Of a stretch of DNA of 6,124 nucleotides, positions 1 to 6,124 are shown one piece after another. Position 1 is the stretch's first letter. The number at the start of each line of letters is the position of its first letter. The position numbers and the translations under genes were made by a program. The notes beneath the pieces were generated by a model. The model was not told where the DNA came from. It did no database searches and worked only from the letters and a program-made list of their open reading frames with translations. This stretch comes from Pseudomonadota bacterium (lineage in GTDB: Bacteria > Pseudomonadota > Alphaproteobacteria > UBA8366 > JADFVY01), in contig DAOVHN010000161.1 in assembly GCA_030671915.1 (NCBI GenBank), forward strand, positions 1-6,124. The letters are read 5' to 3'.

Positions 1-194
1 CCGGTTTCCCCGACCGCGTCGGCCACCGTATCGAAGACGGGCAGGTCGAGATGCCTGGAACCGCCCTTGCCCGGCGTGACACCGCCGACCATCCGGGTAC
101 CGTAGGCGATCGCCTGTTCGGAATGGAAGGTGCCCTGCGAACCGGTGAAGCCCTGGCAGATGACCTTCGTGTTCTTGTCGACCAGTACGGCCAT
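1..194 (-). CDS. sucD: Succinyl-CoA synthetase alpha subunit, N-terminal part (cut by window edge)
   Basis: The alpha subunit carries the CoA-binding Rossmann domain and, further on, the histidine that is phosphorylated during ATP + succinate + CoA to ADP + phosphate + succinyl-CoA in the TCA cycle. Only the first 64 residues are present. They begin [18 protein letters not shown] and continue through [16 protein letters not shown] and GGVTPGKGG (about residues 18-46), almost identical to E. coli SucD and typical of the CoA-binding fold. The catalytic histidine lies beyond the window. The start codon overlaps the last base of the sucC stop (TGATG), with a strong AGGAGG seven bases upstream inside sucC, so the two subunits are probably translationally coupled. 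The family call is secure. Malate-CoA ligase alpha (MtkB) is related, but the canonical SucC partner next door argues for SucD. Confidence 0.95.
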
Positions 195-1390
195 CAGCTT
201 GCCTCCTTCACCGCTTTAACGATTTTTTCCGCGGCGTCGCCCAGATCATCGGCCGACAGGATCGGCAAGCCGGACTCGGCCAGGATTTTTTTGCCCAGGT
301 CCACATTGGTGCCTTCCAGCCGCACCACCAGGGGCACCTGCAGGCTGACCTCGCGCGCGGCTGCGACGACGCCCTCGGCGATGACGTCGCAGCGCATGAT
401 GCCGCCGAAGATATTGACCAGGATGCCCTCGACATTGGCGTCGGACAGGATGATCTTGAAGGCCTTGGCGACGCGTTCCTTGGTGGCGCCGCCGCCGACG
501 TCCAGGAAGTTCGCCGGATCTCCGCCACGCAGCTTGATGATGTCCATCGTCGCCATGGCCAGGCCCGCGCCATTCACCATGCAGCCGATATTGCCGTCGA
601 GCTTGATGTAATTGAGTTCGTGTTTGCTGGCTTCGAGTTCGGCGGGGTCTTCCTCGTCCTCGTCGCGCAGGTCGGCGACATCGGGGTGCCGGTAGAGCGC
701 GTTGTCGTCGAAATTCATCTTACCGTCGAGCGCGATGATCTCGCCCGCGCCGGTCACGACCATCGGGTTGACCTCGACCATACTGGCGTCCAGCGAGGTG
801 AAGGCCTTGTACATAGCCGAAAGGAATTTCACCGCGGACCCGACCTGTTTGCCCTCGAGGCCAAGCGCGAAGGCGATCTGGCGTCCGTGATAGGGCATGA
901 AGCCGCTCGCCGGGTCGATATCGACCGTGATAATCTTCTCCGGCGTTTCCGCCGCGACTTCCTCGATCTCCATGCCGCCCTCTGTCGAGGCCATCAGGGT
1001 GATGCGGCTGGTCGCGCGATCCACCAGCAGGCTGAGATAAAGCTCGCGCGCGATGTCGCAGCCCTCTTCGATATAGAGGCGCTTGACCTCCTTGCCCTGG
1101 GGCCCGGTCTGCTTGGTCACCAGGACCGCGCCGAGCATTTCGTCGGCGTTCTCGCGGACCTCATCGACGGATTTGACGACACGCACACCGCCCTTGCCGG
1201 CCTCGTCGCCCTTAAAGCGGCCGGCACCACGTCCGCCGGCATGGATCTGGCTCTTGACGACCCAGACCGGGCCGCCGAGATCCTTCGCCGCATCCTCGGC
1301 CTCCTTGACCGTATAGGCGACGACGCCGCGCGGAACCGCGACCCCGAATTTGCCCAGCAGCGTCTTGGCTTGATACTCGTGAATATTCAT
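194..1390 (-). CDS. sucC: Succinyl-CoA synthetase beta subunit (ADP-forming)
   Basis: Complete 398-residue beta subunit; it binds the nucleotide and, with SucD, makes or uses succinyl-CoA in the cytoplasm. The ATP-grasp part opens with [12 protein letters not shown], has Lys46, the HAGGRG loop at 50-55, and the Mg-site residues Glu206, Asn208 (EVNPM) and Asp222 (ALDGK). The CoA-ligase part has VNGAG at 272-276, DVGGGATKE at 297-305 and [10 protein letters not shown] at 326-335, all as in E. coli SucC. It is about ten residues longer than E. coli SucC, mostly from an insertion after HAGGRG (about 56-67), seen commonly in alphaproteobacteria. The start is fixed by the family N-terminus; its ribosome site is weak (ACAGG, spacing about 10). 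It follows tctA by 121 bases on the same strand, whereas alphaproteobacterial sucCD more often follows mdh. MtkA is the alternative, but its loop reads HAGARG. Confidence 0.95.
202..207 (-). promoter_or_regulatory. Ribosome binding site of sucD
   Basis: Read on the minus strand this is AGGAGG, seven bases before the sucD ATG and embedded in the last codons of sucC. Together with the TGATG stop-start overlap it supports coupled translation and equal subunit production. Confidence 0.85.
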
Positions 1391-3664: not shown

Positions 3665-4657
3665 TTAGCCTTTGATGGCGCCCATCTTGATCAGCATCTG
3701 GCGATGAATTTCATTGTTGGTCTGCCAATAGACCTTCATCGCGTCACCACTGATGAGATCGCCGCGCAGGCTCTTCTTCTTGCGATATGCCTGCCATTCG
3801 TCGGAATCGAAGACGTTCTTGAACAGGCCCTGATAATAAGCCAGGGCTTCCGCAGACATCTTGGGCGCGCCAACGACGCTGCGCTGCATGTAATATTCGA
3901 AGTCCTTGCCAAGCTCCTTGAAAGTCGGGGCATCGGGGAACATCGCCATGCGCTCGTCCGTAAAGGCGGCAATCGGCACCGTGTCGCCCGCCGCGTAGAA
4001 GCCTTCCTGCTCCGACGGATTGTTAACGGTCGAATTGGCATGCTGGCCAGCCAGCTGCTTGGCGACCGCGCCGCCGCCCTTGTAAGGCACATACTTCATG
4101 CTGAGCCCGTATGCCGAATTCAGGAAATCGGTGAGCAGGTTGTCTTCAGACGCCTTGCCGGTACCGGCCATGATCCAGTCGTTGCCCTTTGCCTTAGCGG
4201 CCTTGACGAAGCCGTCGACGTCTTTGATGCCCGAGTCCTTGTGGACCCACAGCAGGAAGGTATCTTCCGCCATGCGCGCGATTGGCGCGAAGGACAGCGG
4301 ATCCACGCCAAGCGCCGGCTGACGCAGCGGGGTCGTGTAGAAGCTGTTCAGCGTCACCATGATGGTATGGTTCGCGTCTGCGCCCTTTTTGCCGTTCAGA
4401 TGAACCAGCGCCTCGGCACCGGAACCGCCCGGCTTGTTCACCGGCAGCAGCGGCATCGCCGACATTTTGTGTTTTTCAACGACGGATTGCATCAGACGGG
4501 CCATCTTGTCGGCGCCGCCGCCCTTGCCCGCCATGATGACGAACTCGATCGGCTTGTTGGGCTCCCACGCGAATGACGCGACGGAGCTGTAGGTCAGTGC
4601 CGTGGCCGCAACCGCGGCGACCGCAACACCCGTACCAATTTTACGGATCTTATTCAT
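3665..4657 (-). CDS. tctC: Tripartite tricarboxylate transporter substrate-binding protein
   Basis: A 330-residue periplasmic receptor (TctC/Bug family) that captures the carboxylate and delivers it to TctAB. A Sec signal peptide is clear: basic MNKIRK, a hydrophobic core to about residue 25, and a likely cut after ASFA at 30. The mature protein begins WEPNKPIEFVI. Family marks include GKGGGADKMARLM (45-57), NKPGGSGAEA (74-83), PYKGGGAVAKQLAGQH (191-206) and DERMAMFPDAPTFKELG (224-240). The usual PFPAGGG near the start is replaced by IMAGKGGG, so this is not a textbook citrate- or Bug-type sequence. Three starts are possible: TTG at 4675, ATG at 4663 and ATG at 4657. The AGGAGG at 4667-4672 is nine bases from 4657 but only three from 4663, so 4657 is chosen. 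It is first in the leftward unit. The ligand is unknown. Confidence 0.93.
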   Translation of the reverse strand: MNKIRKIGTGVAVAAVAATALTYSSVASFAWEPNKPIEFVIMAGKGGGADKMARLMQSVVEKHKMSAMPLLPVNKPGGSGAEALVHLNGKKGADANHTIMVTLNSFYTTPLRQPALGVDPLSFAPIARMAEDTFLLWVHKDSGIKDVDGFVKAAKAKGNDWIMAGTGKASEDNLLTDFLNSAYGLSMKYVPYKGGGAVAKQLAGQHANSTVNNPSEQEGFYAAGDTVPIAAFTDERMAMFPDAPTFKELGKDFEYYMQRSVVGAPKMSAEALAYYQGLFKNVFDSDEWQAYRKKKSLRGDLISGDAMKVYWQTNNEIHRQMLIKMGAIKG

Positions 4658-4666
4658 GAGCATTAG

Positions 4667-4672
4667 CCTCCT
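4667..4672 (-). promoter_or_regulatory. Ribosome binding site that fixes the tctC start
   Basis: AGGAGG on the minus strand. Spacing is nine bases to the ATG at 4657 and three to the ATG at 4663, and the TTG at 4675 lies ahead of the site itself. It supports the 330-residue product with a normal signal peptide. Confidence 0.8.
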
Positions 4673-4847
4673 CAACAGCTATGGTTCTTATTTCTACTTT
4701 AACGACGCCCCTTATCAGGACGCTCAGACGCGGATCATACACAATTGCAGACCCATCGCCAGACCATTGACGCAGTTTTTACCCTGCCAATCCCTCTATT
4801 GGGCGACCGCCTGGAGGCGCATGTGCGCAACACAGGTATTTGGCATT

Positions 4848-4857
4848 TGGTATACCA
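4848..4857. promoter_or_regulatory. Operator-like palindrome 1 (GntR/FadR type)
   Basis: TGGTATACCA is a perfect 10-bp palindrome. It fits the GT-N-AC dyad pattern known for FadR-subfamily GntR repressors, which often control carboxylate catabolic genes. It lies immediately downstream of the leftward -10 candidate (4866-4871), about where transcription would begin, a natural place for repression. The regulator gene is not in the window, so the family is inferred from the site only. Confidence 0.6.
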
Positions 4858-4865
4858 CGCTTTTA

Positions 4866-4893
4866 ATCATACCAAAATGAATGATTGGATCAA
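4866..4893 (-). promoter_or_regulatory. Sigma-70-like promoter for tctCBA(-sucCD)
   Basis: On the minus strand TTGATC (4893-4888) is followed after 16 bases by TATGAT (4871-4866); the matches to consensus are 4/6 and 5/6. Initiation would fall near 4858-4860, next to the palindrome at 4848-4857. The -10 box overlaps the TTTTGGTATG element (4877-4868). This is a sequence match only. Confidence 0.5.
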
Positions 4894-4916
4894 GCATAAA
4901 AAATGTAAGGCGTGAA

Positions 4917-4946
4917 TTGAATTTAATTACCATATCCTAATATAAA
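4917..4946 (+). promoter_or_regulatory. Weak promoter candidate for the second SucC-like gene
   Basis: TTGAAT and TATAAA separated by 18 bases give a sigma-70-like pair with 4/6 and 5/6 matches, in AT-rich DNA where chance matches are common. If used, the start would be near 4953, and the second palindrome (5007-5016) would lie about 55-60 bases downstream, acting more like a roadblock than a promoter block. A start closer to the palindrome is also possible. Confidence 0.3.
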
Positions 4947-5006
4947 CAAACATCATGTAATACGGCCTTATACGTTGCTTCGGCCTTGCGAGAACCTTTT
5001 GGTATG

Positions 5007-5016
5007 TGGTATACCT
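5007..5016. promoter_or_regulatory. Operator-like palindrome 2 (GntR/FadR type)
   Basis: TGGTATACCT contains the perfect 8-bp palindrome GGTATACC and differs from palindrome 1 at one base. It is directly preceded by TTTTGGTATG (4997-5006), the same element that precedes palindrome 1 on the opposite strand. It lies about 100 bases before the start of the rightward gene. Two matched sites in one intergenic region make chance less likely than one alone. Confidence 0.55.
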
Positions 5017-5081
5017 GAGCCCATCGAAGATCGAAATACGGTTTACAGAACCCCGTCATTCAGGCCATAGCCTACTGGGTC

Positions 5082-5103
5082 GCGGCTGAACGGCGGCTGA
5101 ACG
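5082..5103 (+). repeat. Perfect 11-bp tandem repeat, two copies
   Basis: GCGGCTGAACG occurs twice without a gap (5082-5092 and 5093-5103), ending 13 bases before the ATG at 5117. The period is close to one helical turn. It could be a paired protein site, an element in the mRNA leader, or a simple duplication by slippage. Confidence 0.8.
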
Positions 5104-5116
5104 ATCGGGACAGCGA

Positions 5117-6124
5117 ATGAACCTTCACGAATATCAGGCCAAGGCACTGTTGCGCGAATACGGCGCGGCAATCCCCGACGGCGTACTCGCGGCGAGCTCG
5201 GAAGAGGCTGCGGACGCGGCACGGAAGCTGAGCGGCGACTCATGGGTGGTGAAAGCCCAGATCCATGCCGGCGCACGGGCACAGGCCGGCGGCGTGCGGA
5301 TGGTGTCTTCCCCCGACGAGGCCGCGGCGGCCGCGCGCGGCTTGCTGGGCAAGCGTATCGTGACGGCGCAGACCGGCCCCGAAGGCATCGCGGTCAAGTC
5401 TGTTTATGTGGAAAAGGCATGCGACGTCGACCGGGAGATATACGCGGCCATCCTCGTCCACAGGGCAAAGGCCAGCGTCGTGGTTCTGGTCGGCCGCGAG
5501 GGCGGAACCGGCGTTGAGCGCACGCTGGCGCGCCGCGAAACCCTGTATGAGCTTCCCTTCGGGCCGGACGGCGCAGACCGGGCGGGTATAGCCGGGATGG
5601 CCGAGTTTCTGTCCATCCAGCAGGACCAGGCCGAAAAAGTGGCCAGCATGCTGGCCCAGGCCCGGCGGGCTTTCATGGAGCTTGACGCACGCCTGATCGA
5701 AATCAATCCGCTGGCGATGACCACCGACGGCGATGTCGTTGCGCTGGACGCCAAGATGATCATCGACGACAACGCGATGTGGCGCCATCCGGAACTGGAA
5801 GAGCTGCGCGACGAGGACGAGACCGACCCGCAGGAACGCGCGGCCGACCGTTTCGAGATCAACTATGCCCGAATGGACGGCGATATCGGCATTCTTACCA
5901 TGGGCGCCGGTCTGGGCCTGGCGACGATGGATATGGTCATCGACGCGGGCGGGCGACCGGCCGACTTCATGGATGTGCGACCCATGGCAACCCGCGAGCA
6001 GGTCGCCGAGGGCGTCAAGCTGCTGCTGAACGACAAACGGGTGAAGGTCATACTGGTCATGGCGATGGGCGGCGGACTGCTGCATTGCGACACCATCGCC
6101 GAAGGGTTGTCCAGCGTGTTCCGC
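5117..6124 (+). CDS. Divergent SucC-like acyl-CoA ligase beta subunit (open at window edge)
   Basis: An uninterrupted frame of 336 codons running off the right edge; about 50-60 residues should be missing. It begins MNLHEYQAKALL, which fixes the start; only a weak GGGA lies upstream. The ATP-grasp half keeps Lys46, Arg54, Glu195 and Asn197 (EINPL) and Asp211, so nucleotide and Mg binding look intact, though HAGGRG is HAGARA (50-55). The CoA-ligase half is altered. DGNIG is DGDIG, VNGAG is TMGAG (Met262 for Asn), DVGGGAT is DVRPMAT (286-292) and NIFGGI is MAMGGG (315-320). It lacks the insertion found in the neighbouring SucC, so it is not a recent copy. It should act with an alpha subunit, perhaps encoded just downstream, to make a CoA thioester of an acid other than succinate. 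MtkA-type malate-CoA ligase is unlikely, since MtkA keeps VNGAG and GGGA. A degenerate or inactive paralogue is possible. Confidence 0.88.
   Translation, partial: MNLHEYQAKALLREYGAAIPDGVLAASSEEAADAARKLSGDSWVVKAQIHAGARAQAGGVRMVSSPDEAAAAARGLLGKRIVTAQTGPEGIAVKSVYVEKACDVDREIYAAILVHRAKASVVVLVGREGGTGVERTLARRETLYELPFGPDGADRAGIAGMAEFLSIQQDQAEKVASMLAQARRAFMELDARLIEINPLAMTTDGDVVALDAKMIIDDNAMWRHPELEELRDEDETDPQERAADRFEINYARMDGDIGILTMGAGLGLATMDMVIDAGGRPADFMDVRPMATREQVAEGVKLLLNDKRVKVILVMAMGGGLLHCDTIAEGLSSVFR

What the first reader, a model, noticed from the sequence alone, without database searches (positions are those of the whole stretch)
5264..6088. SucC paralogue with rewritten catalytic and substrate loops
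Seen: the rightward SucC-like protein keeps the ATP-grasp residues (Lys46, Glu195, Asn197, Asp211). It replaces motifs that are near-invariant in succinyl-CoA synthetase and also kept in MtkA: VNGAG to TMGAG (Met262), DVGGGAT to DVRPMAT, NIFGGI to MAMGGG, and HAGGRG to HAGARA. Known, from memory: structures of mammalian GTP-specific succinyl-CoA synthetase place succinate in the beta C-terminal domain, contacting the Asn of VNGAG and the loop corresponding to NIFGGI. Inference: this is an ADP-forming ligase for another acid, possibly an undescribed specificity. Acids other than succinate are known for relatives (malate for MtkAB, sulfoacetate for SqwKL-type ligases), but nothing here selects among them.
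Basis: partly seen in the sequence, partly recalled or inferred. Interest (0 to 1): 0.72.

Follow-up and report, generated by a model that had tools for sequence, protein, structure and literature searches.

The report
Predicted oxalate-activating succinyl-CoA-synthetase relative
A rare branch of the enzyme family that makes succinyl-CoA shares sequence changes in both subunits, predicted to lie at the active site, and occurs together with genes predicted to break down oxalate, so it likely activates oxalate instead, which would be a new way for bacteria to start consuming this common plant acid.

Summary
The gene is real and open up to the contig end (window 5117-6124, +). It belongs to a distinct group of SucC-like beta subunits, recognised here by FMDxR (Arg288). 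In 68 proteins this group (37 rows) splits from canonical SucC and MtkA-like rows (31) with 100/100 support, also without the motif columns. The surroundings are oxalate/formyl-CoA genes: TctABC, formyl-CoA transferase (FRC), a thiamine-diphosphate lyase, formate-THF ligase and, in relatives, formate dehydrogenase, PanE-type reductase and OxlT. FRC occurs in 35 of 385 sampled genomes of the class but in all 3 that have this beta subunit, and in 11 of 11 genomes or records tested overall. Best reading: an ADP-forming oxalate--CoA ligase, predicted and not assayed. Against certainty: some such clusters hold a canonical-motif SucC, and formate or succinate is not excluded. No characterised member was found in the sources searched.

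The parts
5117..6124 (+). SucC-like ligase beta subunit of the FMDxR group, truncated by the contig end (336 of about 389 residues)
   Evidence: (P0001, 389 aa, 99% identical)
5897..5911 (+). TMGAG (residues 261-265): Asn of VNGAG replaced by Met262
5966..5992 (+). FMDVRPMAT (residues 284-292): Met285, Arg288, Pro289 in place of FLDVGGGAT
6068..6076 (+). Gly318-Gly320: GG loop lengthened by one inserted residue, shared by the whole group
4676..5116 (.). divergent intergenic region with palindrome GGTATACC at 4849 and 5008; GTATAC core in the same intergenic region of 8 of 8 Tct/beta loci examined; possible shared operator (untested)
3665..4675 (-). TctC, solute-binding protein of a tripartite tricarboxylate transporter
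   Evidence: PF03401
3108..3611 (-). TctB
   Evidence: PF07331
1512..3026 (-). TctA
   Evidence: PF01970
194..1390 (-). canonical sucC (VNGAG, DVGGGAT, NIFGGI, RLEGTN), the only canonical copy that the search of this draft genome found
1..194 (-). start of canonical sucD, overlapping the sucC stop; runs off the contig
   Evidence: gene order in L129 and L130

Best explanation
The gene encodes a SucC-like beta subunit of what is predicted to be a two-subunit, phosphohistidine-type CoA ligase that likely attaches CoA to oxalate (ATP + oxalate + CoA = ADP + phosphate + oxalyl-CoA), within a gene cluster predicted to break down oxalate. Shown: group-specific changes in both subunits, kept ATP-grasp and phosphohistidine residues, and linkage or genomic co-occurrence with FRC, a TPP lyase, and TctABC or OxlT (in some members also formate dehydrogenase and PanE). 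Inferred: oxalate enters through TctABC (or OxlT), is activated by this ligase (FRC can also do it once formyl-CoA is present), oxalyl-CoA is decarboxylated by the TPP lyase to formyl-CoA, FRC releases formate, and formate is oxidised or loaded onto tetrahydrofolate; PanE would reduce part of the oxalyl-CoA to glyoxylate. The ligase would prime and top up the CoA cycle. The gained arginines (beta Arg288; alpha [TS]ER) and the lengthened Gly loop would fit a smaller dianionic acid than succinate.
For: Group. Alpha: 11 of 11 group members have Arg in [TS]ER (TER in 10, SER in L016) and NSxG, against 100 of 100 other alphas with TEG (90) or TEH (10) and NC[PA]G (alphas found through motif expressions, so odd variants may be missed). 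Context: G006 FTL-formyltransferase-FRC-TPP-TctABC // beta-alpha-QOR, then PanE; G014 and G023 FRC-canonical OXC (over cut-off)-GntR-like-TctABC // beta-alpha-FdsGB-FdsA; two Phyllobacterium plasmids oxlT...TPP-frc-beta-alpha...PanE, one continuing to gcl-hyi-2-hydroxy-3-oxopropionate reductase. Co-occurrence: FRC over cut-off in 35 of 385 class genomes, the TPP lyase in 16 of 385, the beta group in 3 of 385, all 3 with both; in G121 and G225 the ligase and the TctABC-TPP-FRC cluster are on different contigs, so this is not only linkage. FRC in 11 of 11 genomes or records with the group and enough sequence. Control: FRC/TPP/Tct near 1 of 79 other sucC loci, 57 of them 15 kb or longer. TPP-FRC loci of 12 of the 13 other lyase genomes: OxlT in 2 of 12, TctA in 7, PanE in 4.
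Against: No assay. The one exception among the 79 other loci (L076) and 2 of 12 further TPP-FRC loci (L216, L219) hold a sucC with canonical motifs near the same cluster genes, and the window itself has canonical sucCD beside TctA, so the cluster may simply want succinyl-CoA. The window genome's TPP lyase is far below the OXC cut-off (222.8 against 739.4 bits) and its G006 relative is nearest solved 2-hydroxyacyl-CoA lyases, so formyl-CoA could arise from another acyl-CoA. 13 of the 16 genomes with the lyase showed no member of the ligase group by pattern search, so it is not essential to the pathway. G225's ligase lies beside carboxylase-like and DASS-transporter-like genes. Asn262 and the RLEGTN Arg are lost in the window subclade but kept in Phyllobacterium and G023, so one substrate for the whole group is not assured. 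FRC alone can activate oxalate. Most of the 120 listed homologues have no context examined.
Confidence: 0.55

Rival explanations
1. It is a formate--CoA ligase (ADP-forming): it makes formyl-CoA to start the FRC cycle, or runs backwards to harvest ATP from formyl-CoA.
For: The same clusters centre on formyl-CoA and formate: FRC, formate-THF ligase, and in some members formate dehydrogenase. One formyl-CoA is enough to prime FRC.
Against: Two gained arginines suit a dianion better than formate (inference). PanE near the cluster and gcl-hyi genes in one Phyllobacterium record point to oxalyl-CoA/glyoxylate.
Confidence: 0.15
2. It is still a succinyl-CoA synthetase paralogue that feeds or drains a succinyl-CoA:oxalate CoA-transferase, so oxalate is activated indirectly.
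For: Canonical-motif sucC sits in related clusters L076, L216, L219 and in the window. An oxalate CoA-transferase plus SCS module that makes ATP from oxalyl-CoA is described in Pseudomonas fluorescens (PMC2752808, passages read).
Against: The window genome already has a canonical sucC beside TctA, so a second SCS would be redundant; both subunits of the group change at conserved motifs. The CoA-transferases YfdE and UctC gave no detected product from succinyl-CoA and oxalate (PMC3720670, passages read), though they are not this FRC.
Confidence: 0.15
3. It activates a different acid, such as a 2-hydroxy acid, whose CoA ester the TPP lyase cleaves to formyl-CoA and an aldehyde.
For: The G006 lyase's best solved match is 2-hydroxyacyl-CoA lyase (270 bits) and it misses the OXC cut-off. 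One Phyllobacterium record has a formaldehyde dehydrogenase gene near the pair.
Against: The same lyase family sits with OxlT in Phyllobacterium and in G102 and G317, with FRC on the same stretch in 12 of 12 further loci; and the group's beta in G014/G023 is in a cluster with a canonical OXC.
Confidence: 0.12
4. A relaxed or decaying sucC copy with no special function.
For: Its dN/dS is three to four times that of canonical sucC for the same three genome pairs.
Against: dN/dS 0.11-0.16 within the genus, full-length homologues, an alpha partner, the inserted Gly318 in 37 of 37 rows.
Confidence: 0.03

Closest known systems
Succinyl-CoA synthetase beta (SucC, e.g. E. coli 1jkj, C. jejuni 6mel)
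   Different: Arg288-Pro/Thr for Gly-Gly, one-residue insertion in the Gly loop, Leu268, Met285; [TS]ER and NSxG in alpha; genomic context
Malate thiokinase MtkA/MtkB
   Same: paralogous ADP-forming ligase with another acid (recalled)
   Different: the MtkA-like rows fall with canonical SucC, away from the group; window protein 317.8 bits against the 604-bit cut-off for NF010647, though truncated
Oxalate--CoA ligase of the AAE3 type (plant oxalyl-CoA synthetase; abstract beginnings seen)
   Same: predicted product, oxalyl-CoA
   Different: AAE3 enzymes are, from recall, AMP-forming ANL-fold proteins; the window protein is ATP-grasp/CoA-ligase
Formyl-CoA:oxalate CoA-transferase / oxalyl-CoA decarboxylase pathway
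   Same: FRC over cut-off in the window genome; TTT or OxlT, and in some members FDH, in the clusters
   Different: adds a nucleotide-driven ligase; in the members checked except G014 and G023 the TPP lyase is not of the TIGR03254 type
Sulfoacetate--CoA ligase SqwKL
   Different: not compared: its sequence was not fetched; only a paper listing was seen

Membership tests
ADP-forming SCS/ATP-grasp CoA-ligase superfamily | ATP-grasp_2 plus Ligase_CoA domains, two-subunit phosphohistidine motif | tested here: met
   PF08442 178.3 bits and PF00549 31.5 bits, both over cut-off; alpha with MGH motif and GE[IL]GG
Succinyl-CoA synthetase proper (SucC) | NCBIfam cut-offs (NF001913 370; TIGR01016 375.55) | tested here: inconclusive
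   354.7 and 332 bits, but the window protein is truncated; the full-length Phyllobacterium member scores 374.4 and 347.7
Succinyl-CoA synthetase proper (SucC) | Gly-Gly at the DVGGGAT position and no residue inserted in the GG loop | tested here: not met
   window protein has Arg-Pro and the insertion; 31 of 31 rows outside the group have Gly-Gly and no insertion
Succinyl-CoA synthetase proper (SucC) | succinate-dependent activity | not testable with these tools
   needs purified enzyme
Malate thiokinase (MtkA) | equivalog cut-off and tree position with MtkA | tested here: not met
   317.8 against 604 bits for the truncated protein, 324.7 for a full-length group member; MtkA-like rows on the other side of the split
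FRC/OXC oxalate pathway (context) | formyl-CoA transferase TIGR03253 over cut-off in the genome | tested here: met
   687.2 against 504.2 bits, G000:C170
FRC/OXC oxalate pathway (context) | oxalyl-CoA decarboxylase TIGR03254 over cut-off | tested here: not met
   window genome 222.8 against 739.4 bits; met in G014 and G023, 2 of 10 genomes searched
Oxalate--CoA ligase activity | oxalate + ATP + CoA to oxalyl-CoA + ADP + Pi | not testable with these tools
   biochemical assay required
SqwKL-type sulfoacetate ligase | sequence clade with SqwKL | not tested
   no SqwKL sequence fetched

The most novel reading that the evidence does not exclude
This is the founding clade of an undescribed ADP-forming, phosphohistidine-based oxalyl-CoA synthetase, created from succinyl-CoA synthetase by an arginine gained in each subunit and a one-residue loop insertion, and it works with a second, non-canonical lineage of oxalyl-CoA decarboxylase, giving bacteria a self-priming oxalate pathway.
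Probability: 0.45. Interest if true: 0.72.

Novelty: new variant of a known kind. Interest (0 to 1): 0.6.

Why it matters
Oxalate is abundant in plants and soils. Bacterial oxalate breakdown is usually drawn as a CoA-transferase cycle, which needs a first CoA ester from somewhere. A dedicated ADP-forming ligase would supply it at the cost of one phosphoanhydride bond and would also feed oxalyl-CoA to glyoxylate and biomass. Where such genes carry a name in the sources seen, it is 'ADP-forming succinate--CoA ligase' or 'succinyl-CoA synthetase', so annotation and metabolic models would place them in the wrong pathway. The shared residues give a direct, cheap test.

Tried and rejected
Decay or missing alpha subunit: rejected. 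Same-length NIFGGI swap and HAGARA as signatures: rejected as read. MtkA membership: rejected. A group created only by the motif columns: rejected, since the split keeps SH-aLRT 100 with those columns removed; the trees are unrooted, so 'clade' assumes the root lies outside. Arg288 as independent evidence: rejected, because I sorted the rows by FMDxR. The pattern search in 385 genomes gave 10 genomes with a hit; a motif scan of every locus held, those of all ten genomes included, found the SucC-like form only in G000, G121 and G225, and one search shows unrelated frames for G094, G232 and G235. Structure: the AlphaFold model of P0001 (pLDDT 85.9) confirms the SCS fold only; no coordinates were handed out, so the pocket around Arg288 was not measured and no heterotetramer was modelled. 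Literature: ten searches in an open-licence subset; 'oxalate' + 'CoA ligase' + 'ADP-forming' + 'oxalyl-CoA' returned 0 papers and 'oxalate' + 'formyl-CoA transferase' + 'succinyl-CoA ligase' returned 0; most subscription papers are not held, so 'undescribed' means not found there. Passages only were read in PMC2752808, PMC3720670, PMC6515984 and PMC9813914; the last two added nothing. The succinate-contact residues are recalled. That methylotrophs reduce oxalyl-CoA to glyoxylate is stated in PMC3720670; that PanE2 is the reductase is recalled, and the original paper was not held. Loss of Asn262 and of the RLEGTN Arg as proof of oxalate specificity: rejected, because members in oxalate clusters (Phyllobacterium, G023) keep both.

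Full report
What is there. The window is the whole of one 6,124-base contig (G000:C356) of a draft genome of 792 contigs; named proteins nearest the beta subunit come from alphaproteobacterial and Rhodospirillales MAGs. It holds, on the minus strand, canonical sucC (194-1390) with the start of sucD, and TctA, TctB and TctC of a tripartite tricarboxylate transporter; divergently, on the plus strand, it holds the SucC-like gene 5117-6124, cut by the contig end. A near-identical full-length protein (P0001, 389 residues, 99% identical) shows what the truncated gene encodes. A second contig of the same genome, C371, starts inside a variant of the same gene (84 residues, 95% identical; 92.5% over 253 bases) and continues with an alpha subunit (415-1293), a PIG3-type quinone oxidoreductase and a NuoE/NuoF-like gene. 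Because the overlap is not identical the two contigs were not joined; beta-alpha pairs in order in G001 and G003 (same genus) show the arrangement directly.

The group. I sorted 68 beta subunits by the motif FMDxR: 37 have it and 31 (canonical SucC plus MtkA-like rows) do not, so Arg288 defines the group and is not independent evidence. The 37 lie on one side of a branch with 100/100 support, also when the motif columns are taken out (SH-aLRT 100); the trees are unrooted. Besides Arg288, five positions separate the groups at 90% or more: Leu268, Met285, Pro/Thr289, Gly299 and an inserted Gly318. The insertion, present in 37 of 37 and absent from 31 of 31, lengthens the GG loop before the conserved CD motif. 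In 10 of 37 rows, the window's own subclade, the VNGAG Asn is Met (Thr in 16, Ser in 3, kept in 8); the RLEGTN Arg is another residue in 23 of 37 and kept in 13, one row being truncated.

The alpha subunit. Eleven alpha subunits from the group (the two Phyllobacterium records represented by one) keep the phosphohistidine motif MGH but have TER (10) or SER (L016) where 90 of 100 other alphas have TEG and 10 have TEH, and NSxG where all 100 have NC[PA]G (the 100 were collected with motif expressions, so odd variants may be missing). So both subunits changed together. From recall, the Glu of TEG and the VNGAG Asn lie at the active site of succinyl-CoA synthetase; I could not measure this here.

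The pathway. In G006 the neighbours are formate-THF ligase, a formyltransferase-like gene, formyl-CoA transferase (676.6 bits, cut-off 504.2), a TPP lyase and TctABC on one strand, and beta, alpha, quinone oxidoreductase on the other, followed by a PanE-like reductase. In G005 the lyase and TctABC are beside the pair, but FRC lies about 120 kb away. In G014 and G023 the lyase is a canonical oxalyl-CoA decarboxylase (1009.3 and 1014.1 bits, cut-off 739.4) and formate dehydrogenase subunits follow the alpha gene. In two named Phyllobacterium plasmids the pair follows a TPP lyase and frc, near oxlT (annotated oxalate/formate antiporter) and PanE; the stretch of one continues to gcl, hyi and 2-hydroxy-3-oxopropionate reductase. 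In the window's genus the pieces are on separate contigs: C170 of G000 has an alpha-subunit tail, TPP, FRC and a formyltransferase-like start, and G003:C149 has TctA-sucC-sucD-TPP in one piece, which places the window inside the same kind of cluster.

Counts and controls. FRC over cut-off occurs in 35 of 385 genomes sampled from the class, the TPP lyase at E below 1e-200 in 16 of 385, and the beta group, by pattern, in 3 of 385 (G000, G121, G225). All 3 have FRC and the lyase. G000 was chosen in advance; for the other two alone, drawing two FRC genomes by chance has probability about 0.008 and two lyase genomes about 0.001 (my arithmetic, simple draws without replacement; phylogeny not modelled). 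In G121 and G225 the cluster TctCBA-GntR-like-TPP-FRC-formyltransferase-like-FTL lies on a different contig from the ligase. Over all searches, 11 of 11 genomes or records with the group and enough sequence have FRC: G000, G001, G003, G005, G006, G014, G023 (72-100% identical to the G006 protein), G121, G225 and two plasmids; the twelfth locus, L016, is a 3.4-kb contig with TctC, beta and alpha only. TctC is divergent from beta in 8 of these 12 loci. G002 and G004, family members without a group hit, have only weak FRC and lyase matches (at most 203 bits), but are 65% and 78% complete. Of 79 other sucC loci (57 of 15 kb or more), 1 (L076) has FRC, lyase and Tct nearby.

Results against. L076 and 2 of 12 further lyase-FRC loci (L216, L219) hold a sucC with canonical motifs, and the window has canonical sucC beside TctA; a role for succinyl-CoA in these clusters is therefore possible, and a P. 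fluorescens route from oxalyl-CoA through a CoA-transferase and SCS is in print (PMC2752808, passages). Thirteen of 16 lyase genomes showed no group member. The lyase of G006 is nearest solved 2-hydroxyacyl-CoA lyases. G225's ligase lies beside other genes. Within the genus dN/dS is 0.11-0.16, well under 1 but higher than the 0.03-0.04 of canonical sucC. Most of the 120 listed homologues have no context examined.

Why oxalate. The same lyase family is with OxlT in Phyllobacterium, G102 and G317, with TctA in 7 of 12 and PanE in 4 of 12 further loci, and with FRC on the same stretch in 12 of 12 (in G113 only part of FRC, at the contig end; G299, the thirteenth such genome, was not fetched). With canonical OXC in G014/G023, the shared denominator is oxalyl-CoA and formyl-CoA. 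A ligase for oxalate would prime the FRC cycle; formate is the main rival. The palindrome GGTATACC (6 of 8 loci) or its GTATAC core (8 of 8) lies between TctC and beta, which fits shared control by the GntR-like regulator seen in several of these clusters; this is untested.

Noticed in passing
G000:C170 698-2422 (L128); L099 3814-5538; L170 8664-10418: A TPP lyase family distinct from canonical oxalyl-CoA decarboxylase (218-223 bits against the 739.4 cut-off of TIGR03254 in L099 and G000) is found in 16 of 385 class genomes, 15 of them with FRC over cut-off, and sometimes beside OxlT: a candidate second lineage of oxalyl-CoA decarboxylase.
   Followed up: partly
window 4849 and 5008: Palindrome GGTATACC in the divergent TctC/beta intergenic region, GTATAC core in 8 of 8 comparable loci: possible operator of the GntR-like regulator in the clusters.
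   Followed up: partly
window 1-1390; L076 5207-7260; L216, L219: Canonical-motif sucC (with sucD in the window genus and L076) sits near oxalate-type cluster genes in several lineages, suggesting a use for succinyl-CoA there.
   Followed up: partly
L004 1330-2328; L099 11620-12612; L209 12387-13361: A PIG3-type quinone oxidoreductase recurs beside alpha or PanE in these clusters; its role is unexplained.
   Followed up: no
L099 1575-2489; L192 10062-10976; L193 8284-9195: A formyltransferase-like gene between FRC and formate-THF ligase, below the Fmt cut-off in L099: possibly moves formyl groups between CoA and tetrahydrofolate.
   Followed up: no
L100 114-2249; L170 4200-6326: A fused ADP-forming acetate--CoA-ligase-like protein beside FRC or OxlT: a second candidate activator of oxalate or formate.
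   Followed up: no
G072, G299, G376: Genomes of about 1.4 Mb from one genus carry FRC and the TPP lyase, so small-genome bacteria may use oxalate.
   Followed up: no
G000:C356 end and C371 start: The two contigs overlap over about 253 bases at 92.5% identity, so the draft genome mixes strain variants or paralogous copies.
   Followed up: partly
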